Part shown: one piece after another, positions 9,846 through 63,810 of the stretch
Numbering within the stretch: position 1 is the stretch's first letter
Layout: the number at the start of each line of letters is the position of its first letter
Source of the DNA: Periplaneta americana
Lineage: Eukaryota; Arthropoda; Insecta; Blattodea; Blattidae
DNA length: 64,000 bases
Direction: 5' to 3'
Assembly (NCBI RefSeq): GCF_040183065.1
Contig: NC_091128.1
Span: forward strand, 171,341,244-171,405,243
The notes under the pieces: generated by a model
The model's input: the letters and a program-made list of their open reading frames with translations, nothing else
Database searches by the model: none
Told to the model about the DNA's origin: nothing
Made by a program: the position numbers and the translations under genes

Positions 9846-9932
9846 CTCGGCCCCGGAACAATTTTTCCCTCGAAATTGTTCAAATCAACTTTACAGGGAG
9901 TTATACCTGAAAGCTTGGTTTGCATAATATAC
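9846..9932 (+). repeat. Truncated SINE tail, copy of 10130-10216
   Basis: GGCCCCGGAACAATTTTTCC, then AACTTTACAGGGAGTTATA and GAAAGCTTG, repeats the tail of the SINE at 10075-10216 without its tRNA head. Confidence 0.75.
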
Positions 9933-10074
9933 GTCACTGTTCGTTAACAGAAAACCACAATTTAAGTCACACAGAGTTAGTGTGCACTCAATGTTGGTTG
10001 CTTGACGGTTGTCAGCCCACTTTGAGGTCTGTGGATATAGAGGGAAAAATTGGATCTGTGTCTGGTAGAGTTCC

Positions 10075-10216
10075 CGGGTAGCTCAGTTGGGAGAGCGTTG
10101 GTACGTTTAACCTAAGGTCCCGGGTTCGATACCCGACCCCGGAACAATTTTTCCCTCGAAATTGTTAAACTCAACTTTACAGGGAGTTATATCCGAAAGC
10201 TTGATTTGCACACGAG
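10075..10216 (+). mobile_element. tRNA-headed SINE
   Basis: The head TTCCCGGGTAGCTCAGTTGG, AGAGCG and CCCGGGTTCGATACCC has well-placed A and B boxes and a closing GGGAA, so it is close to tRNA in form. It runs straight into the tail ACAATTTTTCCCTCGAAATT shared with 9846-9932, hence a SINE. The anticodon arm does not fold cleanly. Confidence 0.75.
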
Positions 10217-13110: not shown

Positions 13111-13264
13111 GGTGATCAGATGATATTAGCGGAAAACAAAGAAGAACTACAAAGAGCGGTTAATAATTTGAATAAAATAGCAAAAGATTTCAGCATGACT
13201 ATATCTAATACAAAAACTAAATCAATGGCCCTCAAAGGAAAAATACAAAAAACGAATAAAAATA

Positions 13265-13945
13265 CGTCTCGTTTGAGGCATTCTTGATTAAATCTAATGT
13301 TGTGGGATGTCTTGATTACTTTCACTCGCGTGGTTCGATATTGGTGAACTAAATGACTTATATCGTCGTTATTCATTGATTAAAGTTCTCGTTAACACTT
13401 TGTTAAAAACATAACACACCCCCACCCCTACCATCGACAACTGCACATCGCAGAGCCACAATCAGCAGTGGTTCAAGAGACACTGAAGACGACGACAAAT
13501 AGCGTCGAAACGGGCCGTCTGTCGAAGGTAAATACCTTTTTAAACAATTTTAACACTTTTAACGTGTGACAGTGTAAATTTTATGTTTTTAACAAAGTGT
13601 TAACGAGAACTTTAATCAATGAATAACGACGATATAAGTCATTTAGTTCAGCAATATCGAACCACGCGAGTGAAAGTAATCAAGACATCCCACAACATTA
13701 GATTTAATCAAGAATGCCTCAAACGAGACGTAATACCCAATTACATACAGCCAACCCCCACCATAGGAACAACACACCCCCACCCCTACCATCGACAACT
13801 GCACATCGCAGAGCCAAAATCAGCAGTGGTTCAAGAGACACTGAAGACGACGACAAATAGCGTCGAAACAGGCCGTCTGTCGAAGGTAAATACCTTTTTT
13901 AAACAATTTTGACACTTTTAACGTGTGACAGTGTAAATTTGGGTA
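13265..13945 (+). mobile_element. Penelope-like element, direct pseudo-LTRs plus inverted 5' piece
   Basis: Two direct copies of about 175 bp (13405-13585, 13768-13945) share CACCCCCACCCCTACCATCG and a hammerhead-like CTGAAGA..GAAAC (13483-13511, 13841-13869). Between them lies the start of an ORF, KVIKTSHNIRFNQECLKRDV, which fits the N-terminus of Penelope-type proteins. 13265-13408 is an inverted copy of that ORF start. This arrangement is known for Penelope-like elements. It is broken, with most of the ORF absent. Confidence 0.72.
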
Positions 13946-15698: not shown

Positions 15699-16595
15699 TA
15701 GATTAGATTAGATTTATTTATTTAACCTGGTAGAGATAAGGCCGTCAGGCCTTCTCTGCCCCTCTACCAGGGGATTACAACTATAACATGAACAATAAGA
15801 TTACAATTAATATTAAATTTACAATTACAATTACAATAAAAATTAAAGTGCGACAAGAATACCTGATTAATGAAAGCTAGACATTTTATCATAGAAGTTA
15901 AGAACAAAGAATATGTTTGTATTTACTAAATTACAAATTAAACCTACAATAACAAAATTCTATAGTGATGAAATTACCGGATATTGAGATATTTTGTGGT
16001 AGATTAAAATAACTATTTACAAGAAACCATGTCTGAACGAGTCTCAATTACTGACCAAGTGCCTAGTAAGTTTGCGTTTGAATTGAATTTTATTTCGACA
16101 GTCCCTGATGCTAGCAGGTAGCGAGTTCCAGAGTCTTGGCAGGGCTATTGTGAAAGAGGATGAGTATGAGGAGGTGCGATGGGATGGTATTGTTAGTATT
16201 GTTTCATGGCGAGAGCGTGTGTTCAGATTGTGGTGGGAAGAAAGGTAAGTGAAGCGAGACGACAGGTACGAAGGAATAGAAGAGTTCAAGATTTCGAAGA
16301 GAAGGAGAAGTGAATGTAAATTTATTGTCTTATCTAGTTTAAGCCAACCTATTGCTTCCAGGGATGGGGTAATATGATCATATTTACGAACATTGCTTAC
16401 AAAACGTACACACAAATTATGAGCACGTTGAAGTTTCATTTTGCTGTCGCTGGAGAGGTCAGTCAGTAAAATGTCAGCATAGTCAAAATAGGGAAATACA
16501 AGGATCTGCACAAGGGACTTTTTTAAGCAAGAGGGAAGATGAACATTTATCCTTTTTAGCACATGAATAATAGAATATACTTTCTGAATAGGTGT
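15699..16595 (-). mobile_element. 5'-truncated LINE, sister of 6775-7680, with 8-bp TSD
   Basis: A 172-codon minus frame (16044-16562) matches the copy at 6801-7319 almost throughout. The 3' UTR has the same AAGGCCTGACGGCCTT hairpin. Duplications ACTTTAAT lie at 15691-15698 and 16596-16603. It is inserted in the tyrosine-recombinase element. Confidence 0.92.
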
Positions 16596-17286: not shown

Positions 17287-18837
17287 CACTCAGGGACAAA
17301 AAAAACCGGACACTTTAATATTTGCTGGTATTTTGCAAAACATTATCTTCTCTTACAATATTATGGTAGCCATCTGTTGTTATGGAGACGTGTATACATT
17401 GTTGATTGTTTTTTGTTTTATAAACAAGCCATTACAACCAAATATTCCAATTTTGCTTTCGGAGTCTCAGCTATAACAATTTTGTCGCAACCATTTTGTG
17501 CTTCATTATCGTTATCATTCGTTATTTCTTTATTTTTACATTTTCTGAGTTTAAGTGGAGTTGTAACATTTGTCTTAAAACAAGATGCGACCTGAAGATG
17601 TGGCTCGAGCTGTAGCCCTTTACGATGATGGATGCAGTGTACGTTACATCGCAAATGTTATGAATATGGCTAGAAGCACAACCCATGATGCCATAAAACG
17701 GTATAGAGAGACCCTAGAATATACCAGAAGACCAGGTTCGGGTCGTCCAAGAGCTACAAATCCAAATGAAGACAGGTATAGGGTGTTGAGAGTTCTTAGG
17801 GAGCGCAACCTGCCAGCTACTAGTGTAGCCCAGCAATTTGTTAACATGCATGGACGCCCAATTTCGGCCAAAACAGTTAGGAGGCTGAAAGCAAGTGGAC
17901 TGATATCAAGTAGACCTGCAACTGGTCCCAGACTTCTCAGGATGCATCGAGTTGAACGACTGCGTTTTGCAAATGATCACAGGGATTGGAGAAATGGACA
18001 GTGGAGCTGTGTTCTGTTCATCGATGAGTCCTGTTTCAATCTGTGCTCACCTGATGGACGTGAAAGAGTTTGGAGAAGGAGGGGAGAACGATTTTCAGTG
18101 TTGCATTTCCGAAAATGTGCCGTATGGAGGTGGTGGAGTGATGGTTTGGGCAGGAGTGTGTACGGATGCTCGTACAGAGTTGGTTTTTGTTGAAAATGGA
18201 AGACTAACAGCTGATAGGTATATAAATGAATGTTTGGCTGATCATGTTGTGCCATTTGGCCAATTTCTAGGCGATAATTTTGTTTTAATGCATGATAATG
18301 CACGGCCGCATATTGCCCATGCGGTCGGAGATTATCTCCAAGAAGTGGGAATCCATGTTCTTCCATGGCCAGCAAGGAGTCCAGACATGAACCCAATTGA
18401 ATACGTGTGGGACATGCTGGGACGGCGTGTTAAGAATAGACGACCGAGACCAGAATCGTTACAAGAGTTGAGGCGAGCACTTGGCGAAGAATGGGAACTT
18501 ATTCCTCAAGAAGACATTGCTAACCAAATTGAGAGCATGCCAAGACGTATGGATGCAGTTATTCAAGCCAGAGAGGGTAATACCCGTTGCTAAAAAGAGT
18601 TTTTAATGTTTAAGGCACCATAAAATGAAAAAAACAGTTAGGCCAAATGATGCCACAGTTATACACCCTTTGTAATTTTTTGTAAATTTTCTCATCAGAG
18701 ATTTTTTTTTCAAATGATGTCGTATAAGGTGCTAAATTAAACATTATTTTGTTTAAATGGGTTTTGTTTCATTTTGAAATAATTGGCAACAAAATAAAAG
18801 CAAATATAGAAGTGTCCGGTTTTTTTTGTCCCTGAGT

Positions 18838-31977: not shown

Positions 31978-34676
31978 TACAAACAAAAATTTCAAAAAAG
32001 CTATTTTCGGTTTCAGGGTGGTTAATTGTATATGTTAGGACCAATTATTTTTGGAAAATCGAAAATTACCAGAAAAATTTCGGCTACAGATTTATTATTA
32101 GTATAGATGTGATTAAGTGCACAGATAATTAGAAAATTAAGTTTGAAGTTTCAGCAGTCCGGCAACAATGCCGCTAACACACTCTACTCATGATACAGAT
32201 GTGAGAGATCAACGAACTCTGTGTGTCTTGGTAGGAGAACTGCTTTCTGCTTCGACATTGCCACCAGTTCGAATTGTGCAGTGACTTGAAATTAGAGGTT
32301 TTTAAAATTAAATTTACACGAAAACTGTCAACAGTATTGAAAATGGCAGAGAAATAAATTATTCTATATTAGATTTCCTATCAATATGGACAAAAATCAT
32401 GATCCTACTCGCAATAGTCACCGATTAAGAGGTTGTTAAACATTTGGGAAAAAATTATGAACTTTCCACCAGTAAGATATTACAGTTTTTTGTTATATAC
32501 AATATGGGCTATTCGCTCTGAAAATCTGTAAGGCTATTTCACTTCCACCCTGTATAATTATCATTATCTTCTCCCACCATTATCACTACCAACACCAGCT
32601 TCAGCGTACCAAGAGAGTAAAAGACAAGAGGCAATTGTTGTGAATCACATGAAAATGCCCTTTTGATGTGCTTTCGCTCACAAGACTTGCATACATTCTC
32701 CTTCTCCCTCAACCTCAGCTACTCGACATAGAGAGAACATCAGCTATAGTAGAAAATTTTTCCGGGCTATGAGGCCGTGGTCTGTTGATTGTGAGACCAA
32801 ACGTTTCGTTCACTGCTGCGGTGAACATCTTCAGTGGTGTCTATTGCTGGTGCGGCTGGTTCTACTGCGTGTGCCGCTTACAGTCTGCGCTGGCTGCATC
32901 GTTGTATATATAGTGCGGGAGGGGGGGGGGCCTTGCCGTTGTCGCCTCGGTCCGCGCTCGAATGTGTTTCGCAGGCGGGTTTGCTGTTTTCCACGCACTC
33001 CGCGTCCGGGGTTGTGTTGTTTAATTGTGCAACACAACACAACCCCGGACGTGGAGCGCGTGGAAAACAGCGAACCCACCCGTGAAGCACATTCGAGCGC
33101 GGACCGAGGCGACAACAGCAAGCCCCCCCCCCCTCCCGCACTATATATACAACGATGCAGCCAGAGCAGACTGTAATCGGCACACGCAGTAGAACCAGCC
33201 GCACCAGCAATAGACACCACTGAAGATGTTCACCGCAGCAGTGAACGAAACGTTTGGTCTCACAACCAACAGACCACGGCCTCATAGCCCGGAAAAATTT
33301 TCTACTATTGACGCCGGCCGTAAAAGCCTACACTCCAATATAAGAACATCAGCTGCTTCTCACCACAAAAGCTTCTGGCTACAGCGTTTTTATCACTTAA
33401 ACCAAGACAGTCCTGTAATTACAAGTGCTTATAACAGAACAGAACAAAACAAAATACAGTACCTGTTGTTTGAAGGGGGTACTTGAGCAGGACTTCTGGA
33501 GGTCGGAATCCCGGTGTGCCTGCCCTTGGAGCTGCCTGCATTTTGCGAATCATGCAAACAGAACATATTTGTGGTTTTCCATAGCAATGGCACTGCTGAC
33601 CTACAGGCGTTTTGGAATGCACTTGTGTCACAGGTGACGGCCTGGAAAATACCAGCTTCTGCTGTTGCTGTTGTGAAGACAGTGGTGGACTTACCAGATG
33701 AGACTTCACCTGGAAACATGGGAATTTGAATGTGTCATGAAGACAGATGATTCAGCAATCATTCTCACCACAGTTGGTCAATATGAAAACATTCACTACA
33801 TTCAAAACAAGTTAAATCTAACAACTGATACCTAATACCTTTTTTCACATAGTTAATATAAAAGGTCACAAATATATGACTCTGTTGGAAAATACACTGA
33901 AGACCATTAATCACAGTTCACAGAAATCAGGGTTATCAACTCCCTTGCATTTATCAAGATTTCTTGCATTTTACCTTTGTTTTTATTTTAAAAGATTTTC
34001 TACCTTCTATTTTCTTCTGGTTTGTCTTCTCAAATGTTCTTTGAATCATGTGAAATGATCATCCTTTTTTTAAAAGAAAGAGAGGTGGGGTTTTGTGTGC
34101 GTGCGTGTGTGTGTGTGTTTTTTTCAGTATATATTTCAACATGCCCCATTACATAGGTTGTAATCTTACATGTTTTCAGCTAGTTCTTCGTCAAGAGTAT
34201 AGTTGGTGTTACTTGCACACTCAAATGCATCGATCAAATTTGTTGTCAATTTACTGCCAAATGTGTGGAATCCCTCTTCATTAACCAAGTACTTTATACC
34301 CATATAATTCCTTTCTTGTTTAATGGTCATTTCACCAATATCTCGAATGCTATTATACTGTGGTCAGAGGAGCTCTCTTCCTCTCCGCATTTCTATTTAA
34401 ATATATACTTCAACAGTCGACTATTTGTTATTCAGTCGACTATTTGTTATTCAGTCGACTATTTGTTATTGTACAGTCGACTATTTGTTATTGTACAGTC
34501 GACTATTTGTTATTGTACAGTCGACTATTTGTTATTGTACAGTCGACTATTTGTTATTGTACAGTCGACTATTTGTTATTCAGTCGACTATTTGTTATTG
34601 TACAGTCGACCCAGCTTCTTCCTCTGTTCGTCTCAAATGTTGGTGTATCCCTGTTGTCATTAACTATATAGAGGTT

Positions 34677-34748
<72 letters not shown>

Positions 34749-37700
34749 CGTGTCTAATGCCGCCAATAGATGGCCCATTTTCAATGTTGAAAACCCGGTG
34801 CCGGCACGTAGCCTACTTCTGTCAAACAGCACCAAGGGGGCTGCCAGGCTTAATGTCCCCAGCCAACGGACAAATCACTTTCAACAGTGACAAGGCTTCT
34901 TTTCATATGCACTGTGGAAAGATTTGGGATTTCAGCCAGGCATATTGGAGCATAATTTAGTGATTAGAAGTTGTGCATCACCATCTCACCTAGTTCCGAG
35001 ATAGAACTTTTACATGAAAATCTCTGACCCCGCTGGGAATCGAGCCCAGGCCGGCTAGTCTGGAGACAGATTCGCTACCACAGAGCAAGGTCCCAGGTCG
35101 TTCAAAAAGTAAGTCCCAAAATGTGCTACATGTGAGTTCAATAGTAAAACTAATTTAAAAAGGTAAAAGGTAAAGGTATCCCCGTAACATGCCATGAAGG
35201 CACTTGGGGGGCATGGAGGTAGAGCCCCATGCTTTCCATGACCTCGGCACTAGAATGAGGTGGTGTGGTCGGCACCACGCTCTGACCGCCTTTTACCCCC
35301 GGGAAAGACCCGGTACTCAATTTTATAGCAGGCTGAGTGAACCTCGGGGCCGTTCTGAAAGTTTGGCAACGAGAAAAAATCCTGTCACCACCTGGGATCG
35401 AACCCCGGACCTTCCAGTCCGTAGCCAGCTGCAAAACTAATTTAAATGATTTTTAATGTTATTGTAAGACTATCAATTTCAGCTCCGGACTAGGGAAGTG
35501 TAGCTTAATAGAGGTTAGTCTATGTCATAAAATTATTTTGTTCAAAAGAAAAAGAAATAAGGTTAGTCTGTCATAATATTACTTTGTAGAAAAGAAAAAG
35601 AAATGAGGACGAAATATGGACAAACATAGTTATATAGACTTAAATTGTATTTTTATTTTATTTAAACACCCTGCTTGTGATACAGAAGATTTCAAGAAAT
35701 CTAATGTTACAAAGTGATTACTGTATGATTGCAAGTTGTGTTCTTAATATAGCCAACACACCTGGTTTCTTGTCCTTTCCAACACTAATACAAATTCACA
35801 GATAATTTTAAGAGTATGCCGTTGTAGCCACGAAAATGACAAGATCTGTGTCTATACAGTTTGTATAACCTGTGCAGGAGTCAACTAAATACATCTCAGT
35901 CATTCTGATTTTAGTTAGCATTGTAAATTGAAGCACAGCCTCGAAATTTGACAAACATACCTGAGAATTCTGCACCCTTACAAAGCTGGGTCCATTAGGT
36001 ATCTCTGGAGCTAGAGTCTGAAATTTTGGTCCACCTGAGTGGATGTTGCTGGTCACCCTTGGGGATCCGGCTGAGAACAGCTTCTTCTTTATGGCACTGT
36101 GCTTCATGTTCACACACTGGTCCTTCAGTGGAGACCGCATGCCCTCGTGCAGCATTCTACGCCGAGGGGTCTTCTTGCTGTTCGGCGGAGTGTTCTCATT
36201 TTTAACACCGAGAACCTAACATCAGGAAACAGAAGTTAACAGCAAAACAACTACAATCACATGCATTCCTACTGAACAAATTAATCATTCCAGGTAAATT
36301 TGTTCACAGTACACTGGCTCGCAAAACTTTTGTCCGATATACTGTACAATTTTTCTCGTTCTTAAGTTGGTATTTGTAGTCACTCTAGGACAGTAGTATA
36401 GGTGGCAGGTAGTCTCCCCGCAGGTAACAAACCACCCCTCCTCACAACAGAAAGGTTGAACCAAGCTACTTAGTAAACTTAAAGAGGATATGTTTACTTA
36501 GTGTTCTAGTGATATAGACCAATTTTATAAACACGGAATTTTGTAGCTCCTCCTCACACCACGTTTCTTTGTGCTGTAGCTTATTTTTCTTTGGCTGTTG
36601 CCATGGTAATGACACTACGTTAATCTATATATATAATTTGAACTGGTAATGGAAATTACGGGAAAACGGCTGAACGGATTTTAATGAGTGACCCCTCATT
36701 TTCATGCCTGGCAACCAAAGTTTTTCGGAAAAGTAGTAGTTTTCAGTGAAATGTCAATTTTCCTACATAATTTTCCTATTTTCCAAAATCCATCTGTTGT
36801 CAGTTTTGAGAACTATTTTATTGAATCACGGCCGACTTGATTGAATTTCAGAACAAAACACACACTACAATAAACAATAGGCTATTACACGAAGGCCATG
36901 ACCTGCAGGATTGCCGACATATTTAGAGCTCAATTCAATTTGTTATTAAAAACTGATTCTGTAGTGTATAATTTTCTGAGTACAGCTGTGTATTGGATAT
37001 TCAAATCTACGGAACTTGAGGTGGTTTGATGACATTATTGCCATTAGAAATTAAATATTATTATAATTTATATCATGATGGATCTATTTTTCATTAATTG
37101 TACATAATATTGATGCTATATTGATGACATGAAAGTGAAACGTTTTGTGGTTATGTAAGTAAATGCAGAGAATATCTTAATTTAGATCTTCATTTCTATA
37201 ATTTACTGAGTGGCTGCTATATATAACTACAAAACTTAAGTAAGATAATAATATTGTTATTAAAAATCAAATATTTTTATACTTATTAACCCAGTGGGGT
37301 TGCGTCTTTTTCATATACTTAATGGCGGTGTAGTGTAGATATTGATATGTGTCATTGTCTTCAGTATTGGCTCGAGAGAGCGCAAAAATTACAGTTCCTA
37401 AGGAAAGATCAAAAGGTATTACTTACTGATAAAATAAGAGGCCTAGAAAATTTTGTAGTCTCCAGATCATTTCAGCAAGATCTCTTAGTAGGATAAAATG
37501 ATTTTACACTCTACATTTCAAGTTCTACATGCAGCAGCTATACGAAAATGCTATTGTTCGAAAGCTTAGCAAACCTGACATTTTTTTTTTAATTTTGCCT
37601 ACAATCCGCAATGACCTGAAATAGCTACTGCTATCGTCCTGACATTGATACTTACGTTTTCGCGTTGAAACTCAAAAAGTGAAGTTGGATAGGTTCAAGA

Positions 37701-40700
37701 AAAAGTATTTGTCCTAAAAAAATCCATTCAGAGGGAGTATGTTCCATTATTATGGAAGCAAATAACTATCAAAAAGACAAGTATTCTTCATTGAAAATAA
37801 ATCTGAAAAATTTTTATTTGAACGTCTAACGAACTTAGTTTGCAGCAGCATTTGCTGCACAAGCCACTAGTAAAATTATATTGATTAAATGTGGCACTAA
37901 CAATATTAATAGATTAATATTCTAAAAATATCGGATAAATAATTTTATTAAGACAAATTGTTATGAGTAGGCCTATGTGTATAATTTAAAAATTGATTGT
38001 CAATTATATCCTGTAGGACACAGCAGTTTAATTTATATTTTGCACATAAAAAAAAAAGATTTGCATATTACTCTCATATAGTAATGGAAGGAAAATGTGG
38101 ATGTAACGAACTAAAAAATAAGCAAAGCATTCAGTATAGAAATAGCAAATGTCTGTGCTTTCAACACGAAACATGATATTGGAACCATATCTGATACAAC
38201 AAAGATGTGTAGATTGAGAAATTGTCCTGTTGAAAAAAAATATAATTCTATCAGGTTGCAATATGCGCATGCTAGTTAGCATATTTCCCATTATGTGGAT
38301 ATATTTGCTGGTAAGTCAAATTCTCTTCAATTTTACACAGAGTTCCTCCTCATAGCCTGGAAATCCATCCCCAAACAGCTACAGAAATACGTCCACTGCG
38401 TTGTGTTGATGTTACATATTCTGGCTGGAACCTTGTGGACCCAATAGACGAAATACCTGAATAGGCCCGTGACTAGTGTTTGAGAACATCTTTTAATCTG
38501 AAAATATTACATTTTCCCATGGATATTCATAATATTCTTGTCAAAATGCGATGTGATCTATTCTATTTTTATGATCCAATATGATATTTATACGTGCAGG
38601 GAAGATGAAAAATTTTCCTGGAATACTATATAATACCCAAGAGAAATAAACAACATGTTTTAAACATTTCGGTGCAAAACAGACTCAATGTTTTATTTCT
38701 GTCGGTTACATATACCGTTATTGCTCTAAAAGGTTGTCTTTGGTTCGATTAGCTAGCTATGTACCTGCAACTCAGAGTTCAAATACCTCCCTTCCCAGGA
38801 CGACATGTGGAGTGGGGTATGTAGACATATTACCAACATAATATCTCACAAAGTTCACTTCCACATTATTTCATAGATAAAAGTTTTGCGAGCTAGTGTA
38901 CAAAGCCCAATATAAAAAAGACCACTGCAAAAATACCCACAACCAAAACGTCAATCAAATAATGCCACTAGTAAAAATTTCCAATATGCAGAAATGTACA
39001 CAAATCAAAATGACAGCTGGTATAAATAATTTTGATCTACTAAGAGAAATGACAAACTGGTTAAGCCCACACCTTACTCCTAGAAGGTGACAATACAATG
39101 TTCTCCGATGATATGTAATTGTGAGAGATGTTGTTTTCATTTGTTCTTGGTTGGAGAGCAAGCCTCTTGCGTTTGTGAAGATCAGGAGTGTCAGCACACA
39201 GCGAAACGCTTGAATTCTTGTCATCCTGGAAAAAAAAATGAACAAGTAGACACAAGCCAACAAAAATGCAACATTAAAAAATCAGTGCTGGACTCATATA
39301 CATTTCTCCAGGGGACCGGGGAGACAAAGACACAGGGGAAAGTACGAGGCGCATCCAGAAAGTAAGTTTCCCTATTTTAAAAAAAAAAGAACACACACTT
39401 TCAGGAAAACATTTATTGGCAACAGGTACAGCAATGTTTCAGCTATTTTTCAACATAGCCACCATCAGAATTGAGACACTTGTCGTATCGTGGGATCAAG
39501 TTTTGTATCCCTCTGTCGTAGAACTCTGCCGCCTGTGAATGGAACCAGCGTGTGACAGACGTCTTCAGCTCTTCGTCGTTGCCAAAACGCTCACCGGAGG
39601 ACAGGAATTTCTTGAGGTGCAAGAAAACGTGAAAATCGCTAGGAGCAAGATCAGGACTGTAGGGTGGATGATCAAACAACTCCCAGCCAAATTCCGTCAA
39701 AACAGCTGCTGTACGCAGAGCCGTATGTGGACGAGCATTGTCATGGAGGAGCACAACACCTGCAGTAAGCATTCCACGCCTCTTGTTTTGAATGGCACGT
39801 CGCAATTTTCGCAGTGTTTCACAGTAACGGTCAGCGTTCACTGTTTCACCTCTTGGAAGGAAGTCATGAGCAGAATGCCCTTACTGTCCCAGAACACCGT
39901 GCACATCACTTTCTGTACCGACAGCGTCTGTTTGAATTTCGTCCTGACCGGAGATCCACTATGCCGCCAATGCATTGACTGCTGCTTGGTTTCCAGGGTG
40001 AAGTGCGAAATCCAAGTCTCATCACCCGTGACGATCCTGTCGAGGAACTCGTCGCCGTCATCGTGATACCGTTGCAGAAATGTCAATGCTGCTCCTAAAC
40101 GTTGCATTTTGTGTTCGGGTGTCAGGTTTTTCGGCACCCACCTGGCACACACTTTTTTGAACAACAGGTGCTTAGTGACAATCTCATGCAACAAGGATCG
40201 CGACATCTGCGGAAAATGCTGCTCAGCTCCATAATCGTGAAGCAACGGTTCTCCATGATGCACTGCCGCACCAGCTCAACACGATCATCACTGATGAGGG
40301 ACAGTCGCCCACTGCACTCTTCATCATGTGCACTTTGACGACCCTCGGAAAACTGCCTACACCAGCGACGCACCATCTGCTTACTCATGATGTTCAGCCC
40401 ATAGACCTGACAGAGCTGCAATGAATTTCAATTGGCGCAATGCTTTGTGCATTAAAGAACTTTATCACCGACCGAACTTCACAGGCGGCGGGAGAAGGAA
40501 TAAGAGCTTCCATTTCGGACCACTGCTGCCACGCTACTGGCACCAGGCGGGACCTGTCCGGCTGGCATATGATTGATACGTCATAGATCTGTTACGCATG
40601 CGCAATTGACACGGCTAATTACGTTTACTTTCAAGGGGAAAAAATCGGGAAACTTACTTTCTGGATGCGCCTCGTAGTTACAAAGCAAAATGAATCTATT

Positions 40701-43700
40701 GAAAAAATAAACAGTAACCTCTAAACAACATTACTTCCACCAACATTAAGCATCTGCATAGAAGACACTATTTTCAAACACAACTTAAATCAACTGTATT
40801 AGGTTAAGATTACAATTTATAACCAGCCTTTTTGTTTACATTAATATAATATGATTTTATTTGTCTTTGATGTTCACTTTAACATTTTTTTTTTCTTTTT
40901 ACTTGGCGATTTAACGAAGCTGTATCAACTACTAGATTATTTAGCGTCGATGGGATTAGTGATAGTGAGATGGTATTTGGAGAGATGAGGCCGAGGATTC
41001 GCTATACCTGACATTCGCCTTACAGTTGGGAAAAACCTCAGGAAAAACCCAACCAGGTAATCAGCCCAAGTGGGAATCAAATCTACGCCCTAACGCAATT
41101 TCATATTTATTACAAAATATAAAACTAAAATACTGGTATATAAAAATATAACAATAATAATAAATTAAAATATAAGTTATATATACATTTTTATTTTATT
41201 CTATTTTTTATTTTATTTTTTTTTTTTGTAATTTCAGCCAATTTTGCCAAAATATACAGTAAAATATCATTATAACGAAATAAGTCATGTTGCGAGATTA
41301 GTGACTTGTGTCTTGAGATTGGAGGACCATGCTGAGAGATTAGTGAACTGTGTTTGGCAGAAAAAAATTAAATGGGGACAATAAGGGAACAATTACATGA
41401 AAAAAAGCTAACATAAAATAATTCAGAAACATCTGCATCATAGTACACATATCTAGATATTTAATGACCACGTGGCCATTATGCAATATTGTAATTATAA
41501 AATATGTTCCTACTTGCTAGCGAATTGTAGCCTACCCTATATTTAAAATATTTTTCGTTAAAAAGGTAGATTTGTTCGGCACGAGAGTGAAATTTGTATT
41601 TCGTTATACTGATTTTTTTTTCTTAAAAACGAAATGTGTTAAATTGAAATTATATGGTAAAAAGGTAGGAGACATAAAATAATTTCCTAATACTGAATAT
41701 TTCCTTATACTGGCATTCATTATAACGATATTTTACTGTATTATACAGATAATCCACAAGAAAACTTAAATCTTGTGATGTGATGAATGCATGGTTTTGT
41801 GCCTCATCTTATTCTAAGGCTATGAACTCCAACTTCAATTACACGATATTGTGTGAATATGGATGAAAGTAAGGATAGGATGGGTATTTTCCGGGCTAGA
41901 GGGCCGTGGTCTGTCGGTGTTACAACCAAACATATCGTCCACTACTCCGGTGGACATCTTCAGTGGCGTGGTACACATGTGCGGAGAGATCTGCTGTGTG
42001 TATCAGGAACTGGCATTGAGACTGGCAGCACGTCGATATTTAAGGTGTGGAACTGTTGTTGCTTGTCGCTGTCGCCGCGGTCCGCACCAGTGGCTTCGGT
42101 GTTCTGATTGTTTGTCATAGTGTCTAAATGTGGGAGAGAAAGGGTTTGATGTGTGTGCTTCTGAGGGCCGGATACCAAGCTTTGTTGACCTTGAGTCCTT
42201 CCTCCTTATGGTTAAAGTTGTTTTTGTGTTTATGAATTTCAATAGCTTCCCGATGTAACCTGGCATAGAAGTGTGGCAAGATGCTTAGGATGTTGGTGTC
42301 CTGGAACCTGAAGATGTCCACCGTAGTGGACGAAACGTTTGGTTGTAACACTGACAGACCACGGCCCTCTAGCCCGGAAAATACGCATCCTATCAACACC
42401 GACCGTGAAAGCCTACATTCAAAGTAAGGACGTTCAAATTGTATACATTTGCAACACTGATTTCATATATTCAGTTGTAAAAAAAAAAAAAACAGAAAAA
42501 CATTATAAACAAGTGAATTTAAATATTGTTTTTTAAAATTCACTGATAGAACATTAACAAATTTTCTTTTGCTCAGGGGAATAAATACCACTGGTGATAC
42601 CTTATGAATTCATCATTCCAGAAACTGTTTTGCTTTGTATGATTAGCTTCAACTGTAAAGATTAACTACAAATTCCACACCTCTTCACGTTTTCTTTTCT
42701 TATGCTGCTGTGTTGATCCAGGAAATGGGGATCTCAATGTATCTTTATTTACTTCTTCATGCTTCTTCCTTTTGAACTGTAATGCTACACCAGAGTTACT
42801 GGTGTCAGTTGCAGGAAAATCTGTAGTTATGCTTTGTGCAAGACCAAAGTCAACCAACAGGAATCTGTAACAAGATAGACCAAGAAGACAACTTTACCAA
42901 TTGATTCATGTTTACAACACCTCTTTAATAGATTCACATTACCAGTAAATTTCCTACAAACATTGTTTTAATTAATACATTTATAGCTTACAATTAACAC
43001 TATAGTTCTTTTTTTAAACAGTGTTTTACTTTATTTTGCACATAGCTAAAATTTGACCTTGACTACATCTCTGCAGATGAAACAAAAAATCTCCCTCCCC
43101 TCCCCCCTCTCTCTCTAGTGCCTACCCATTTCAATTTGAAGACAGAATTTGGACTCACTTCGTCTCAAATTTCATCATTTAAATTTGTACCTGTCACTTC
43201 TCTTTAAATAGAAAGGTCATTTTCTACGTACAAAAATATTTTGACAGCTGAATGCATGAACTTGATTGCTGAAAATCTGGAAAGTGTGTTAGTAGTTTTT
43301 TTTTTAATTGGTTATTTTACGACAGTTTATCAACAGCTATGATTATCTATTGTCTGAGTGAGATGAAGATGATAATGCCGACAAAATGAGTCCAGGTCCA
43401 GTGCTGAAAGTTACCTAGTATTTGCTCTTAACCCCTTACTGCATAGAACAGTTTAATATTCGAATAACTTAAATAGTTCTCTCCTTCTCAACTGATGTCA
43501 CATGATCAAATCCAGTTATTAACAGTGTGCCATATCTGTTCCAGTATGCAGTTTGAAATATTATATGCTTATTTTATAAGTAGGGAACGGAATTTGGAGC
43601 AGTAAAAGCTAGTATTGGCATCTACACAGCCATTTGTTTACAACCCTTTATACAAAGTCCTCCCCTCCATGACATACTCGCAGCTCTCTGCACGTCAACA

Positions 43701-49700: not shown

Positions 49701-52165
49701 GTATTTTCTCCTTATCCTTCAAAGAGGTGGAAAAATTCAAATATCTTGGAGCAACAGTAACAAAGCTAAATGACACTCGGGAGGAAATTAAACGCAGAAT
49801 AAATATGGGAAATGCCTGTTATTATTCGGTTGAGAAGCTTTTGTCATCTAGTCTTCTATAAATGAATACAATATAATATTTTATTACTCAGTCAATGACA
49901 AATCAATGTGAAATAATGACTTATTTTATAGTCATTAAGTTTATATACATGAATTACAAAATTGCGAACGTTTTCGCCTATTCAGGCATCCTCAGGCAGA
50001 GTTATACAATATCTCAATGTCACATACGTAGCTATTGGTGGTGAGTACTATTTGAATTAATGATGTACAAGCCATCTCCATTAATAAAATGTAATATTAC
50101 AGGTAGTAAACTTAATAATGTTAAAAATGTTAAAACCATTTAGTAATTAAACTTCATAATATGTGGAACTCGTCTCACCACTACGTAAGTACCTCCATAA
50201 TTTAGCCCTCCAATTAATTTTTCAAATTTTACTAAAATTGATATTAATTATTATTTCATTACAAATAATTTACATTAAACACAGGATGTTATAATAATCC
50301 ATACAGTTGCTAACTATGCAGTTGTCACATTTTAAATCGACGTGAGTACTTTTAAAATATCCAATGCGATTACATTTTACATTTGATATTCCCATTTCTA
50401 TTATATTTTTTATACATTTCAGATATTCACCACTCAAAGGACTGAACAAGAGTTCCACATATTATGAAGTTTAATTACTAAATGGTTTTAACATTTTTAA
50501 CATTATTAAGTTTACTACCTGTAATATTACATTTTATTAATGGAGATGGCTTGTACATCATTAATTCAAATAGTACTCACTACCAATAGCTACGTATGTG
50601 ACATTGAGATATTGTATAACTCTGCCTGAGGATGCCTGAATAGGCGAAAACGTTCGCAATTTTGTAATTCATGTATATAAACTTAATGACTATAAAATAA
50701 GTCATTATTTCACATTGATTTGTCATTGACTGAGTAATAATATATTATATTGTATTCATTTATAGAAATTGACAATCTGAATATTCCATCATGCTTTCTA
50801 AGTTAATCTAGTCTTCTGTCAAAAAGTCTGAAAGTTAGAATTTATAAAACAGTTATATTACCGGTTGTTCTGTATGGTTGTGAAACTTGGACTCTCACTT
50901 TGAGAGAGGAACAAAGATTAAGGGTGTTTGAGAATAAGGTTCTTAGGAAAATATTTGGGGCTAAGAGGGATGAAGTTACAGGAGAATGGAGAAAGTTACA
51001 CAACGCAGAGCTGCACGCATTGTATACTTCACCTGACATAATTAGGAACATAAAATCCAGACGTTTGAGATGGGCAGGACATGTAGCACATATGGGCGAA
51101 TCCAGAAATGCATATAGAGTGTTAGTTGGGAGGCCGGAGGGAAAAAGACCTTCGGGGAGGCAGAGACGTAGATGGGAAGATAATATTAAAATGGATTTGA
51201 GGGAGGTAGGATATGATGGTAGAGACTGGATTAATCTTGCACAGGATAGGGACCAATGGCGGGCTTATGTGAGGGCGGCAATGAACCTACGGGTTCCTTA
51301 AAAGCCAGTAAGTAAGTAGGTATTTTCTCCTTTGTGTTGTGTGTAGCAGGGTCGAAGATTCAATATGGAGTGTCTCCTGGGAGACGGAAAAGACTGAACA
51401 GCAAATAGAAAAATCTGAAGAGCTCTGTATCGAACAACTCCGCAAGGTAGAGGAGGACTGACGAAGTAAGCAGGATATGATTAACCGGTTTATTTAACCA
51501 GGATCTGATTGGTGATTTTAAAACAATAATTATCCCATAAATGTCCATACCCTATATCCTGTAAACACTGCAGTTCCCGCTCTGTGCGTGATGGTAGTGT
51601 AGTTGGTACTAGATGCTTGATGGCAAACTGGCGTGCCACATGCTTGCTGTCGGTATTAACGTTCTTCAGAGTGCCAAGGAACACCGAGCTAAATGTTCCT
51701 TCTCCCACTTTTCGGTGAACATGAAAATGTTCTGCTAAAACAGGCAGTTTCGTAAGCAGATACTGAATTTGACTCTGGTCACCTACAAAGCAAAGCATAC
51801 GGAAACACATAAAAAAGTACTTAATCCTGCGTAATTTAACAAAATGATATGCTCTTGCCCCACAATCTGTAACAGCATGGAAATGAAATGCTTAAATAAA
51901 ACTTACGATCAAATGATATATCCTTTTCGACTGCAGTTCCTGCTACGGACAGTGAGGTCTGAAACGACTGTTTATGCTCCAGGCTGATGTGATCTTTCGG
52001 CTCAACATTATCCTGTCCTTTATTATGGTAAGAGATGTCACCTGCATCTTCTCGAGTAATTTCACTACATTTAGATAATTTGGTTACGTTATAACCATAA
52101 CTAATTTGTTCTTCTTGCCCAGTATTACTAAAAAATGGTACTCGAGATGAAGCCAGAACTTCCAT
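27245..52165 (-). CDS. CDC7: CDC7 serine/threonine kinase (whole gene, 9 coding exons)
   Basis: This gene encodes the catalytic subunit of the DBF4-dependent kinase, a nuclear enzyme that phosphorylates MCM helicase subunits to fire replication origins. Joining nine exons with GT/AG borders and matching phases gives 630 residues, against about 574 in human. Visible motifs are the glycine loop GEGTFSSVF (113-121), the ATP lysine in FAIK (142), HRDIKPSN with catalytic Asp229, DFG at 248-250, GTPGFRPPEV near 453-462 and DMW at 474. Between DFG and PPE lies a long insert of about 200 residues, the kinase insert typical of CDC7; a second insert lies before the final SAYSLLERLLDLNP segment. The start ATG lies just after a good acceptor (52183-52184), so a 5' UTR exon probably lies upstream. 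Introns carry all the transposons between 27.6 and 51.6 kb. The identification is secure; exact ends rest on hand-read splice sites. Confidence 0.95.
27713..28866. mobile_element. hAT transposon copy with 8-bp TSD (CDC7 intron 8)
   Basis: The ends CAGCGTTTCTCAAACTATGG and AAAGTTTGAGAAACGCTG are classic hAT inverted repeats. TAATAAGT duplications lie at 27705-27712 and 28867-28874. Its 1154 bp carry no recognisable hAT transposase. A 101-codon minus frame (27913-28218) is unassigned. Confidence 0.93.
29043..29192 (-). CDS. CDC7: CDC7 coding exon 8 (DxWxxG helix)
   Basis: This exon encodes AVDMWAAGIIFLCILSG, CYPFFRSPDDLSALAEIMSV and then FGTEGIKKLASKLG. It matches human AIDMWSAGVIFLSLLSG. The acceptor is GTTCACAG and the donor GG|GTAAAT is in phase 1. 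Confidence 0.96.
29440..30380 (-). mobile_element. Internally deleted DDE transposon (CDC7 intron 7)
   Basis: The ends AGAGCTGAGACGAGATG and TTATGGCACCA are matched inverted at 30350-30380. On minus, an N-terminal domain (EIAYDVWKFMSEEAVNGIP, TGISKRTLARIREEG, FDEEVLRRLIYNFYATHKQ) runs almost directly into a C-terminal tail (YVKKVENNYIESEHVMDSIF, DSSTDQSSDSDGE, stop). The DDE catalytic core is missing between them, and small frameshifts are present. Confidence 0.75.
31033..32556. mobile_element. TIR element split by another dispersed repeat (CDC7 intron 7)
   Basis: The ends TATACAGGGTGGAAGTGAAA and TTTCACTTCCACCCTGTATA are perfect inverted repeats. The interior from about 31119 to 32109 is a different repeat: CTAGCCGTATCCGTGCGC at its start, ATCGAAATCCGTTCAGCC and (ACAG)n late, TTATTAGTATAGAT at its end. 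Without it the outer element is about 530 bp. Confidence 0.8.
31119..32109 (+). repeat. Dispersed repeat with (ACAG)n, type unresolved
   Basis: ATCGAAATCCGTTCAGCCATT, here ATCGAAATCCGTTCAGCC followed by ATTATCGCATG and an ACAG microsatellite (31947-31977), is a motif widespread in arthropod repeats. I cannot assign a class from sequence alone. Confidence 0.5.
32746..33342 (+). mobile_element. Penelope-like palindrome with hammerhead-like motifs, 12-bp TSD
   Basis: Arms of about 275 bp (32747-33020 and 33033-33308) are nearly perfect inverted copies around GTTGTGTTG..CAACACAAC. Each arm carries CTGAAGA, a 6-bp stem, then GAAAC. A tail of about 34 bp follows the right arm only. AGAACATCAGCT flanks both sides (32734-32745, 33343-33354). 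It lies in CDC7 intron 7. No ORF of the family remains, and the matching frames on both strands are a palindrome artefact. Confidence 0.8.
33220..33251 (+). ncRNA. Hammerhead-ribozyme-like core
   Basis: CTGAAGA-T-GTTCAC-loop-GTGAAC-GAAAC has the two conserved boxes and a 6-bp stem II. One extra T precedes the stem, and stem I is weak, so self-cleavage is not assured. The mirror copy is at 32803-32833 on minus. Confidence 0.4.
33463..33709 (-). CDS. CDC7: CDC7 coding exon 7 (end of insert, activation segment)
   Basis: It encodes a Gln-rich stretch (SSQQQQQK), then CHCYGKPQICSVCMI, which parallels the Cys motif CDCYATDKVCSICL of human CDC7, then APRAGTPGFRPPEVLLKYP with the PPE motif. The acceptor is TTTCCAG and the donor G|GTACTG is in phase 1. 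Confidence 0.95.
34414..34610 (+). repeat. Compound minisatellite of 19- and 22-bp units
   Basis: The unit CAGTCGACTATTTGTTATT occurs with or without a trailing GTA. Starts are at 34414, 34433, 34452, 34474, 34496, 34518, 34540, 34562, 34581 and 34603. Each unit holds a GTCGAC site. It lies in CDC7 intron 6. Overlapping frames through it are artefacts. Confidence 0.97.
34681..34752 (+). repeat. (TG)n microsatellite
   Basis: About 36 TG dinucleotides, with two GC variants at the 3' end, lie in CDC7 intron 6. A shorter TG tract is at 34096-34119. Confidence 0.98.
34755..35093 (-). mobile_element. tRNA-derived SINE
   Basis: The tRNA-like head is on minus at 35025-35090 (B box from GGGAATCGAGCCC read on plus). 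The body runs toward the TG repeat, which may be its tail region. No clear duplication was found. Confidence 0.65.
35160..35432 (-). mobile_element. tRNA-derived SINE with 14-bp TSD
   Basis: The B box is GGTTCGATCCC on minus near 35402. The 3' tail is (TTTACC)n as read on plus at 35161-35180. Perfect duplications AAAACTAATTTAAA lie at 35146-35159 and 35433-35446. Confidence 0.92.
35512..35606 (+). repeat. Two-copy direct repeat, about 47 bp
   Basis: GGTTAGTCTRTGTCATAA..AAAAGAAAAAGAAATRAGG is present twice in tandem with small differences. Confidence 0.75.
35961..36215 (-). CDS. CDC7: CDC7 coding exon 6 (kinase insert)
   Basis: It encodes VLGVKNENTPPNSKKTPRRR and continues to GPSFVRVQNSQ. 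The basic, Ser/Pro-rich composition suits the CDC7 kinase insert. The donor CAG|GTATGT is strong. An alternative upstream donor (TTT|GTAAGG) exists but would break the frame into exon 7. Confidence 0.85.
36312..38898 (+). mobile_element. Tc1-like transposon remnant holding a Helitron (CDC7 intron 5)
   Basis: Inverted repeats CACTGGCTCGCAAAACTTTT and AAAAGTTTTGCGAGCTAGTG are flanked by TA. Near 38320-38420 the plus strand reads SLQFYTEFLLIAWKSIPKQL, like the Tc1 transposase C-terminus (..aW.sIP..). The interior is disrupted by the Helitron at 36624-37870. Confidence 0.82.
36624..37870 (+). mobile_element. Non-autonomous Helitron, copy 1
   Basis: It starts with TC (TCTATATATATAATTTGAAC) after A and ends with CTAG before T. 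A hairpin GCAGCA-TTT-GCTGC lies 7-20 bases before the end. These are the defining Helitron features. There is no Rep/helicase ORF. A near-identical copy is at 58673-59922. Confidence 0.92.
39345..40674 (-). mobile_element. Mariner transposon, 1330 bp (CDC7 intron 5)
   Basis: Inverted repeats CGAGGCGCATCCAGAAAGTA and its complement of about 28 bp are flanked by TA (39343-39344, 40675-40676). The full family length is present. Confidence 0.95.
39443..40513 (-). pseudogene. Mariner transposase, DD34D, frameshifted
   Basis: The start is MEALIPSPAACEVRSVIKFF, followed by VYGLNIMSKQMVRRWCRQFS, EECSGRLS, VPKNLTPEHK (linker motif), GDETWISHF, HDNARPH and YSPDLAPSDFHVF. The second and third Asp are 34 residues apart, the mariner signature. 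The span of 1071 nt fits about 350 residues. About three frameshifts separate the segments, so it is inactive. Confidence 0.92.
40899..41101 (-). mobile_element. tRNA-derived SINE
   Basis: Read on plus: ACGAAGCTGTATCAACTACT, GAGATGGTATTTGGAGAG, and the head GTGGGAATCAAATCTACG. It is the same family as 5304-5559, older and inverted. Confidence 0.82.
41257..41738. mobile_element. pogo-like MITE, 482 bp
   Basis: The ends CAGTAAAATATCATTATAA and TTATAACGATATTTTACTG are inverted repeats with TA duplications (41255-41256, 41739-41740). It is non-coding. Confidence 0.85.
41876..42420 (-). mobile_element. Penelope-like element, inverted arms and GIY-YIG tail, 10-bp TSD
   Basis: Arms of about 85 bp (41880-41964, 42310-42396) are inverted, each with CTGAAGA-T-stem and, in the right arm, GAAAC. 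Between them minus reads FYARLHREAIEIHKHKNNFN and LKVNKAWYPAL, the C-terminal end of the GIY-YIG endonuclease domain of Penelope-like proteins. AAAGTAAGGA flanks both sides (41866-41875, 42421-42430). Most of the coding region is missing. Confidence 0.85.
42308..42336 (+). ncRNA. Hammerhead-ribozyme-like core
   Basis: CTGAAGA-T-GTCCAC-CGTA-GTGGAC-GAAAC has a perfect 6-bp stem II and both conserved boxes, with the same extra T as at 33220. Activity is not assured. Confidence 0.4.
42681..42864 (-). CDS. CDC7: CDC7 coding exon 5 (DFG motif, start of kinase insert)
   Basis: The exon begins KFLLVDFGLAQSITTDF and then runs into the low-conservation, basic kinase insert ending HKKRKREE. The acceptor is TTGTTACAG. 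The donor GAG|GTGTGG is weaker than the others but keeps phase 0 with exon 6. Confidence 0.9.
43788..44405 (+). pseudogene. hAT-type transposase C-terminal fragment
   Basis: Successive frames read LKRWESWLEACNYYAHHLQS, VAAIQIRQELLNDRTIEKEV, then VNKLSAVEGEVGKRVGEKMN and VSCFKYSPIVSADVKKFPS. This parallels the hAT C-terminus (..F.YaPItSvdVErSFS) and the fragment at 57487-57900. Stops and a frameshift break it. Confidence 0.6.
45019..45641 (-). mobile_element. 5'-truncated LINE with 12-bp TSD
   Basis: Minus reads INNTLIERVNSFNYLGYNLS, VYKTLARPVLTYGSEAWTIR and MRFMRRTAGCSLLEHRKN, the C-terminal part of a non-LTR reverse transcriptase. The tail is (ATG)n. Duplications ACCATTCGTTAT lie at 45007-45018 and 45642-45653. 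It is nested in the piggyBac-like element. Confidence 0.92.
45946..46088 (-). CDS. CDC7: CDC7 coding exon 4 (catalytic loop)
   Basis: The exon encodes DYMHDMTVSETRDYM, LNLFIALRRVHSFN and IIHRDIKPSNFLYDRENK, which includes the catalytic loop with Asp229, Lys231 and Asn234. The acceptor is TTTGGCAG and the donor is GTAAGT in phase 2. Confidence 0.97.
46630..47005 (-). mobile_element. LINE C-terminal fragment (Cys/His knuckle)
   Basis: Minus reads RRLAVASFRLNTEHDILGKH, CILCRQQEDMDRQHLAKC and YWEARARMF, the tail that follows the RNase H region in I/R1/Jockey-type LINEs. It is related to 48946-49242. It lies in CDC7 intron 3. Confidence 0.75.
47524..48269. mobile_element. TIR MITE, 746 bp, beside CDC7 exon 3
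   Basis: The ends CCAGCGAATAGGGATTATAA and TTATAATCCCTATTCGCTGG are inverted repeats of about 31 bp. GTACA flanks both sides (47519-47523, 48270-48274). It ends 33 bp inside intron 3 from the exon 3 donor. Confidence 0.88.
48303..48396 (-). CDS. CDC7: CDC7 coding exon 3 (hinge)
   Basis: This exon encodes GGSDNVSGIDLCL through VVFIMPYLPHKRFS, matching the CDC7 hinge (human MPYLEHESF). The acceptor is CTGTTTCAG and the donor is T|GTAAGT, in phase 0. A 746-bp MITE begins 33 bp downstream of its 3' end. Confidence 0.95.
48938..49326 (-). mobile_element. LINE 3' end with its own inverted copy
   Basis: Minus 48938-49242 reads VVAFRLATGHDCLAKHLHRI, CSLCNSNQEMDSEHLKIC and YWSARGQM, ending in AACAACA. 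The terminal 75 bp (CATTTGACAATAAAGTC and onward) recurs inverted at 49243-49318, again with an (AAC)n tail to 49326. It lies in CDC7 intron 2. Confidence 0.8.
49714..51312 (+). mobile_element. LINE with 20-bp TSD, interrupted by a Penelope-like insert
   Basis: The plus strand carries VEKFKYLGATVTKLNDTREE before the insert and LKVRIYKTVILPVVLYGCET to GRQRRRWEDNIKMDLREVGY and NLRVP after it. The tail is (GTAA)n. Perfect duplications TAAGTAGGTATTTTCTCCTT lie at 49694-49713 and 51313-51332, so this is a young insertion. It lies in CDC7 intron 2. Confidence 0.93.
49858..50805 (+). mobile_element. Penelope-like palindrome in a LINE, 12-bp TSD
   Basis: Arms of about 314 bp (49862-50175, 50448-50763) are inverted copies. 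Each carries CTGAGGA-T-GCCT..AGGC-GAAAA (right arm 50626-50651, left arm mirrored at 49970-49995). A tail of about 40 bp follows only the right arm. ATCTAGTCTTCT is duplicated at 49846-49857 and 50806-50817. No ORF remains. Confidence 0.8.
51551..51782 (-). CDS. CDC7: CDC7 coding exon 2 (glycine loop, ATP lysine)
   Basis: The exon is entered by the acceptor TTTGTAG and left by the donor GTATGG in phase 2. It encodes the N-lobe: GEGTFSSVFLG, FAIKHLVPT and the helix C segment RTERELQCLQDIG. It is separated from exon 1 by an intron of only 124 bp, the one short intron in the gene. Confidence 0.95.
51907..52165 (-). CDS. CDC7: CDC7 coding exon 1 (N-terminal tail)
   Basis: This exon encodes residues 1-86, starting MEVLASSRVPFFSNTG, a poorly conserved hydrophilic tail ahead of the kinase domain. 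It ends with the donor GTAAGT at 51901-51906 in phase 1. An acceptor TTATTTCAG lies 17 bases upstream of the ATG, so the exon probably begins at 52182. An upstream ATG in the short leader is out of frame. Confidence 0.88.
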
Positions 52166-62627: not shown

Positions 62628-63301
62628 CTAATAATTATCTGTGGTGCCACAGCCCTTGAAAGGCTCAGACAGACCAGCCGGCTGTTGGCCTCACGTTCAC
62701 ATTTCGATAATAATTATACTTTACTGTAACAAAAAAACTGAAAGCGTGTTTTGTCATGTTTCACCCACGTTACAAGCTTGGAGGTAAAGGTTGTTTACTA
62801 CAGATAGGGCCTACTTTCATTCTATATCTTATGGTATAGTAAATAGTTTGCAACGTGTAGAGACTGGAAAAACAATTTAATAAAATCATCCGAATCATAC
62901 TCGTTCATTTTATAGGCAATCTTGCAGGTCGCATTTAAAAGAACCTAGGAATATTAACATTTTCTTCAGTATATTTGCTAGGACTTCTTGTCATACTACA
63001 TGGCAATTTTGCTTAGGTTATTCTTTTAAGCATTCCTTCTAGGAATAGCTCAAGTGTTTTAAATTTAGCATACATAAGTTTAGATTAAGTTTCTAGCACG
63101 TATTTGACGAAATACTAGGTTTTTCCACTTCAGTTTAACTGATTTATGCAAACGAAATTAAGACAGCTGACGATTCTAATGTCAGTTATCACCACGCCCA
63201 CTTTGTTTTGGGCGCATAAGTTCATTACCGACGGTCGTTCAATTTTCTTCAAACATGGCGGCGCAATGACCACTCTATATCTTTCTCTTTCTAACTCGTT
63301 G

Positions 63302-63525
63302 CTTACAGTTGTTTCGGTAAATAACCATCGTCAGAGCCTACTGGATCATAGCGTCATCTTGATATCGCTGCCTGTTGTTCTCAACACACAGATCAATTTC
63401 AGAACACACTCAATATTTAACTCCACATTACAACACACAAACACACCCATACAACAGGCAGCGATATCAAGATAACGATATGATCCAGTAGGCTCTGACA
63501 ATGGTGTATATACTGAAACAACTGT
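63302..63525 (+). mobile_element. Short Penelope-like palindrome with hammerhead-like motifs
   Basis: Arms 63302-63391 and 63451-63525 are inverted around an AC-rich loop (CAACACACA..AACACACCC). The left arm on minus reads CTGACGA-T-GGT..ACC-GAAAC; the right arm reads CTGACAATGG..GAAAC. It is inserted in the right end of the P-like element. No clear TSD was seen. Confidence 0.65.
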
Positions 63526-63810
63526 AAGCCCACGTGCTTAAATATATAACACTAGTAAGTTGCCCATTTATCAATCTTCTACAATAGTATTGCATTTACG
63601 TTGGACCTGTAGGCAAAGATTGTGGTCAAACCTATACATTATTTATTTCCATAAAAATAAGTTTTGAAATGTGTCATATCATTTTCAGAGACACTGTAGT
63701 AAAGTTACTTTCCATGTATGAAGAGAGCAAGTCATTGGCCAAAAAACGACTGATCCTGCTGTAATGGGTTCACACCCTGTAACAGCTACCTATCTTGTAA
63801 TGAGTTCTTG

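What the first reader, a model, noticed from the sequence alone, without database searches (positions are those of the whole stretch)
32746..33342. Hammerhead-like palindromic Penelope insert with one-sided tail
Seen: two arms of about 275 bp form a near-perfect palindrome; each arm holds CTGAAGA-T-stem-GAAAC; a tail of about 34 bp follows only the right arm; a 12-bp duplication bounds the whole. Known: Penelope-like elements have pseudo-LTRs and hammerhead motifs. Inference: this is a compact, ORF-less form made of two head-to-head pseudo-LTRs that moves as a unit. The same plan at 41876 and 49858 argues it is a recurrent product and not one accident.
Basis: partly seen in the sequence, partly recalled or inferred. 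Interest (0 to 1): 0.78.

Follow-up and report, generated by a model that had tools for sequence, protein, structure and literature searches.

The report
Head-to-head Penelope retrotransposon insertion
This stretch is a small mirror-image insertion left by a known kind of jumping gene, a Penelope-like element; the layout has been described before, but its lopsided end gives a clue to how these elements copy themselves into DNA.

Summary
32746-33342 is a head-to-head palindrome: two 275-nt arms (12 of 275 positions differ), a 13-nt loop and a 34-nt tail on the right only, inside a 12-bp target-site duplication. Each arm carries a minimal hammerhead-like motif pointing outward; seven such folds lie in the window, none in 200 shuffles, under a rule loosened after a stricter one found none. 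Best reading: an ORF-less insertion of a Penelope-like element (PLE). Inverted pseudo-LTRs with an optional 31-bp one-sided tail and a 9-bp TSD are published for PLEs (PMC3846280). The outer ends lie 83 and 117 nt past an ATG inside the hammerhead, which fits the internal reverse-transcription starts mapped for an anole PLE (ORF +111-118; tail 30-40 bp; PMC11167929). I favour two separate starts, one per cut target strand, joined in the middle. No host genome is held, so copy number is untested.

The parts
32734..32745 (+). Left copy of the 12-bp target-site duplication AGAACATCAGCT
32746..33020 (-). Left arm (pseudo-LTR, sense on the minus strand), ends without tail
32796..32838 (-). Minimal hammerhead-like fold of the left arm, predicted cut after 32800
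   Evidence: core starts 32834
33021..33033 (.). 13-nt loop at the head-to-head junction
33034..33308 (+). Right arm (pseudo-LTR, sense on the plus strand)
33216..33258 (+). Minimal hammerhead-like fold of the right arm, predicted cut after 33254; ATG at 33226 at the start of stem II
33309..33342 (+). 34-nt tail, right side only
33343..33354 (+). Right copy of the 12-bp target-site duplication
41875..42420 (-). Element 2: related head-to-head insert, 72-nt arms, open frame on the minus strand in the spacer, tail about 42394-42420, TSD 41866-41875 / 42421-42430
49858..50805 (+). Element 3: head-to-head insert of another family, 318-nt arms, 278-nt spacer, 42-nt tail 50764-50805, TSD 49846-49857 / 50806-50817
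13263..13940 (+). Element 4: inverted 152-nt piece plus two direct hammerhead-bearing units; no clear TSD
63301..63529 (.). Fifth candidate: decayed inverted repeat with a hammerhead-like fold in its left arm; no TSD found

Best explanation
It is an ORF-less insertion product of an endonuclease-bearing Penelope-like element. The element's enzyme cut both strands of the target, staggered by about 12 bp. The free 3' end on each side then primed reverse transcription inside a PLE transcript near the pLTR/ORF-start junction: at the inner (short) start site on the left and at the outer (long) start site on the right. Both cDNAs ran about 275 nt back through the hammerhead and the presumed promoter region, stopped, and were joined head to head; filling in the staggered cut gave the TSD. 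The tail is the sequence between the two start sites, so it appears on one side only. Shown here: arms, loop, tail, TSD, hammerhead-like motifs, end positions. Inferred: the enzyme, the order of cuts, two separate priming events, the joining. That it is a PLE insertion: about 0.93. That two separate initiations made it: about 0.6 (the confidence given).
For: Anatomy: arms, 34-nt one-sided tail, 12-bp TSD. Published PLEs have inverted pLTRs, an optional 31-bp tail on one of them and a 9-bp TSD (PMC3846280, passages). Ends: 83 and 117 nt past the hammerhead ATG in element 1; 80-83 and 107 in element 2; the left end of element 4 lies 114 nt past its candidate ATG (some offsets finished by hand from its coordinates). 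The anole PLE starts reverse transcription mainly at ORF +111-118, its tail is the stretch between two start sites, and its enzyme cuts and extends both strands (PMC11167929). The tail is one-sided in 3 of 3 inserts with a TSD (elements 1-3), and the no-tail ends of elements 1 and 2 are at homologous positions. Hammerhead-like folds: 7 in the window, 0 in 200 shuffles.
Against: Small numbers. Element 3 does not fit the offsets (132 and 174 nt from its hammerhead ATG, by hand coordinates), nor does the right end of element 4 (homologous to a point 38 nt before the ATG). Codon comparison of elements 1 and 2 shows no purifying selection, so that the tail is coding is not shown. The arms of elements 3 and 4 are nearly identical (2 of 318 and 1 of 152 differences), as one template would also give. 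The lowest-energy fold of 33210-33265 has the hammerhead layout, but 44 of 200 shuffles fold as well, and the longer piece 33200-33290 prefers another fold without stem I; the pieces of elements 3 and 4 do not give the hammerhead as their best fold. No Rfam hammerhead in element 1. No RT or endonuclease gene in this insert.
Confidence: 0.6

Rival explanations
1. Snap-back or self-priming: one PLE cDNA, or an antisense template, folded back at its end and copied itself, giving the palindrome in one pass. This is the published proposal for inverted PLE junctions.
For: Proposed from the many palindromic junctions in Adineta vaga, on an antisense template (PMC3846280, Discussion). Nearly identical arms in elements 3 and 4. 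Short loop of 13 nt in element 1.
Against: A self-copied arm should carry the tail too or stop at an arbitrary place; here the tail is on one side in 3 of 3 inserts with a TSD, and the no-tail ends of elements 1 and 2 are homologous.
Confidence: 0.27
2. A self-propagating ORF-less palindromic unit: the head-to-head form is itself transcribed and moved by PLE enzymes.
For: ORF-less form with both ends and a TSD; Adineta pLTRs can carry foreign sequence in trans (PMC3846280, passages).
Against: No second copy with this junction in the window; other inserts have different junctions; a full transcript would pair up both hammerheads. Genome-wide copies untested.
Confidence: 0.05
3. Two nested or successive pLTR insertions in opposite orientation, or a later rearrangement of a longer PLE copy.
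For: PLEs favour AT-rich targets and also insert into other mobile elements (PMC3846280).
Against: One TSD bounds the whole and the search gave no other TSD-like pair at its ends apart from a palindromic AAAATTTT; no second TSD at the junction was noticed, but I ran no separate search there.
Confidence: 0.05
4. Not a PLE product: an assembly artefact, or a DNA transposon of the TIR/MITE kind.
For: Palindromic form.
Against: The two ends differ (tail on one side), arms differ at 12 of 275 positions, flanks are not mirrored, a TSD is present.
Confidence: 0.03

Closest known systems
Adineta vaga Penelope elements with inverted pLTRs (Pen2a_Av and kin; PMC3846280, passages and Discussion seen)
   Same: Inverted pLTRs, optional 31-bp tail at one of them, 9- or 10-bp TSDs, palindromic head-to-head junctions, TATATATA in the pLTR
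   Different: Those copies still hold ORF sequence between pLTRs; element 1 holds none. Hammerheads are not part of the passages I saw.
PAc, Poseidon from Anolis carolinensis (PMC11167929, abstract and main text seen)
   Same: Start codon at hammerhead stem II; start sites at ORF +111-118 and a 30-40 bp tail match the ends here; cut 26 nt after the start codon (29 in element 1; 26 in the right arm of element 2, counted by hand)
   Different: PAc is a full element in tandem arrays; the paper does not discuss inverted copies. Sequence relationship not tested.
Metazoan retrozymes (PMC7229834, passages seen)
   Same: Small, ORF-less, type I hammerhead; the 358-nt spacing of the two hammerheads in element 4 falls in the reported 170-400 nt range
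   Different: Retrozymes are direct tandem repeats with canonical hammerheads; element 1 is inverted with a minimal motif

Membership tests
Penelope-like elements (Penelope/Poseidon clade) | ORF with telomerase-like RT and GIY-YIG endonuclease | tested here: not met
   The focal insert has no such ORF (ORF list), as expected of a truncated copy. Element 2 has an open frame recalled as a PLE ORF end, without database support. So it is filed as a non-coding derivative, not as an element.
Penelope-like elements (Penelope/Poseidon clade) | Pseudo-LTRs, direct or inverted | tested here: met
   Two inverted 275-nt arms; form described in PMC3846280
Penelope-like elements (Penelope/Poseidon clade) | Optional 30-40 bp tail on one side | tested here: met
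   34 nt in element 1, about 27 and 42 nt in elements 2 and 3
Penelope-like elements (Penelope/Poseidon clade) | Target-site duplication of roughly 8-12 bp | tested here: met
   12, 9-10 and 12 bp in elements 1-3; none found for element 4 and the 63-kb candidate
Penelope-like elements (Penelope/Poseidon clade) | Minimal hammerhead in the pLTR | tested here: inconclusive
   Motif and stems present in both arms, rule set after the fact; Rfam negative; fold not better than many shuffles; activity untested
Metazoan retrozymes | Direct tandem repeats with a canonical type I hammerhead | tested here: not met
   Arms are inverted; Rfam Hammerhead_1 not found in element 1
TIR DNA transposon / MITE | Two equal ends in inverted orientation | tested here: not met
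   34-nt tail on one side only
   No genome held; one copy in the window

The most novel reading that the evidence does not exclude
PLEs insert by two-ended target-primed reverse transcription: a dimeric enzyme primes one cDNA from each cut strand, one at each of two internal start sites, and the two cDNAs are joined. The one-sided tail on head-to-head pseudo-LTRs would be the genomic footprint of this, and ORF-less palindromes such as 32746-33342 its shortest products.
Probability: 0.4. Interest if true: 0.6.

Novelty: new member of a known kind. Interest (0 to 1): 0.33.

Why it matters
How Penelope-like elements complete their insertion is open; PMC11167929 says that the later steps are yet to be validated. 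If the two ends of inverted copies map to the two start sites, the origin of inverted pLTRs can be tested in any PLE-rich genome by mapping end positions. The locus itself is an ordinary non-coding PLE relic.

Tried and rejected
Rfam: on the whole window at gathering threshold the only match was a tRNA. On 32700-33400 at E up to 10 there were 22 matches, 21 to microRNA models and 1 to a bacterial sRNA model, fitting the long hairpin. Single pieces: two irrelevant matches in element 1, a weak Hammerhead_1 match at 13477-13525 (11.3 bits, cut-off 34, E 8.6), none of that kind in element 3.

Hammerhead scans: the first required stem II directly after the core and found 0 in the window and 0 in 100 shuffles. 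I then allowed one extra base, which the copies seen by eye have, and changed the stem II rule (minimum 3 Watson-Crick pairs instead of 4 with G-U): 7 in the window, 0 in 200 shuffles. The exchange control (31 of 32 pairs, true pairing best of 24 permutations, runner-up 30, mean 19) used stems that I chose by hand from four copies and left out the right arm of element 2, whose stem I is cut by the junction, and the 63-kb candidate.

I first took the cut site of element 1 to be GTC, which left stem I unpaired; the fold of 33210-33265 showed stem I pairing with a GTT site.

Codon test of the tail frame: not supportive. Arm divergence as a test of one template or two: inconclusive.

Relatives: no relative by tblastn in viral contigs or genome contigs (pattern-limited scans). 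A DNA pattern gave L001 and L002 in viral contigs; by eye their long open frames look phage-like, the L002 match lies inside a listed open frame and the L001 match between listed ones, with no PLE context, so I took both for chance.

Literature: 8 searches. In the listings and passages that I saw, nothing links inverted pLTRs to priming from both strands. Cervera 2014, Craig 2021 and Lunse 2017 are not held. PMC12910113 was looked at by passages and had no bearing.

Full report
Observation. The described structure is present at the stated coordinates. Arms 32746-33020 and 33034-33308 are 275 nt each with 12 differences and a 13-nt loop. The tail, 33309-33342, is 34 nt and on the right only. 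AGAACATCAGCT flanks the insert at 32734-32745 and 33343-33354 and occurs nowhere else in the window on either strand. As RNA, 32748-33342 (all but the first two bases) folds into one long hairpin, -561.5 kcal/mol against -202.7 (sd 6.5) for 100 shuffles.

Hammerhead. The pattern CTGANGA...GAAAC occurs 8 times in the window against 0.68 expected; five of the eight lie in elements 1, 2 and 4 and one in the 63-kb candidate, while 5955 and 22042 are elsewhere and do not pass the structural scan. The best fold of 33210-33265 gives stem I (ACCA/TGGT plus GA/TC), the unpaired CTGAAGA core, stem II (GTTCAC/GTGAAC plus a U-G pair) and GAAACGTT with no room for a helix III loop, but 44 of 200 shuffles are at least as stable, and the longer piece 33200-33290 prefers a fold without stem I. 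The structural scan finds 7 folds and 0 in 200 shuffles: both arms of element 1, both arms of element 3, two in element 4, one at 63334 on the minus strand; a stricter first form found none. All seven have one extra base between core and stem II. Element 2 holds two damaged copies: an altered core on the left, a stem I cut by the junction on the right. Rfam recognises no hammerhead at threshold in the window and none in element 1 at E up to 10. Reviews report that PLE hammerheads are minimal and usually lack helix III (PMC6155905 and PMC7761336, passages). Activity is untested; in the anole PLE the ribozyme cut only with protein present and was not needed for insertion in vitro (PMC11167929).

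Anatomy against published PLEs. In the anole PLE (abstract and main text) the start codon lies at stem II, the cut is 26 nt after it, and reverse transcription starts at two adjacent internal sites, most often in an AC-rich loop 111-118 into the ORF; the 30-40 bp tail is the stretch between the two sites. In element 1 an ATG lies at the start of stem II (33226), the predicted cut is 29 nt after it, and the outer ends lie 83 and 117 nt after it. In element 2 the ends lie 80 (right arm) to 83 (left arm) and 107 nt after it. In element 4 the left end lies 114 nt past a candidate ATG at 13619 (left-arm offset and cut distances counted by hand). Against this, element 3 does not fit (132 and 174 nt, by hand), nor does the right end of element 4, homologous to a point 38 nt before the ATG. 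The frame from ATG through the tail is open in elements 1 and 2, but the codon comparison shows no purifying selection (35 codons; 4 synonymous and 17 non-synonymous changed codons). That the tail is coding is inferred from the anole geometry, not shown.

Other inserts. Of the 15 inverted pairs, four (I3, I4, I5, I13) are elements 3, 1, 4 and 2, and I15 is a match between elements 1 and 2; the 63-kb candidate appears only. Element 2 (41875-42420) has TSD AAAGTAAGGA (10 bp, the last base shared with the arm) and a tail of about 27 nt. Its minus strand reads an open frame that I recognise as the C-terminus of a PLE ORF (recall), followed by a pLTR; the only Pfam match to it was an unrelated one below cut-off, PDB gave none, two collections none. 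Its right arm starts at the hammerhead core. Element 3 (49858-50805) has a 12-bp TSD, a 42-nt tail and 318-nt arms with 2 differences. Taking it out with one TSD copy leaves an uninterrupted frame across the site; so does keeping both copies, since 12 bp is in frame, so this supports an insertion but not the TSD itself. Element 4 (13263-13940) combines an inverted 152-nt piece with two direct hammerhead units and has no clear TSD. The fifth candidate (63301-63529) is decayed, with no TSD found. Inserts thus recur, with different junctions and contents.

Mechanism. The published view of inverted copies is self-priming, which would have to occur on an antisense template (PMC3846280, Discussion). 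The present data add one point: the tail is on one side only in 3 of 3 inserts with a TSD, and the no-tail ends of elements 1 and 2 are homologous. A self-copied arm should carry the tail or stop anywhere. Two separate starts, one at each start site and one from each target strand, explain this directly, and the anole enzyme cuts and extends both strands. Arm differences do not decide: in element 1, 12 of 275, of which 7 are changes between CpG and TpG or CpA, and 11 of the 12 lie in the inner 144 nt; elements 3 and 4 have nearly identical arms. The number of cases is small.

Novelty. Inverted pLTRs with an optional one-sided 31-bp tail and a 9-bp TSD are in print (PMC3846280, passages), and a curation guide lists inverted pLTRs and short 3' extensions as known peculiarities (PMC8969392, passages). 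PMC11167929 uses the word inverted once, for a blocked oligonucleotide, and does not discuss head-to-head copies. I saw nothing in 8 searches that links inverted copies to priming from both strands (listings and passages); many relevant papers are not held. The locus is a new member of a known kind.

Limits. The host genome is not held, so copy number, the empty site of element 1 and full-length relatives are untested; the organism was not identified.

Noticed in passing
13263-13940: Two direct hammerhead-bearing units 358 nt apart with an inverted 152-nt piece in front and an open frame from 13619; looks like an internally deleted PLE or a retrozyme-like dimer.
   Followed up: partly
63301-63529: Decayed inverted repeat of about 78 nt with a hammerhead-like fold on the minus strand at 63334 and a mutated one in the other arm.
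   Followed up: partly
hammerhead cores at 13483, 13841, 32834, 33220, 49995, 50626, 63334: All seven folds have one extra base between the CTGANGA core and stem II; whether this is normal for PLE hammerheads I could not check.
   Followed up: no
32905-32912 and 33142-33149: Each arm has a TATATATA, read by eye; if promoters, the palindrome could drive transcription outward on both sides.
   Followed up: no
6780-7319 and 16044-16583: Inverted 540-nt repeat, 96%, each with a 172-aa open frame; no Pfam match for the first one.
   Followed up: no
17585-18593: Two overlapping open frames in different frames; the first matches Pfam HTH_Tnp_Tc3_2 (E 1.6e-08), a Tc-type transposase region.
   Followed up: no
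36622-37871 and 58671-59923: A 1.25-kb direct repeat, 95% alike, of unknown kind.
   Followed up: no
10072-10144: tRNA match (Rfam, 40.8 bits) next to an 82-nt direct repeat 9843-9924 / 10129-10210; could be a tRNA-derived SINE.
   Followed up: no
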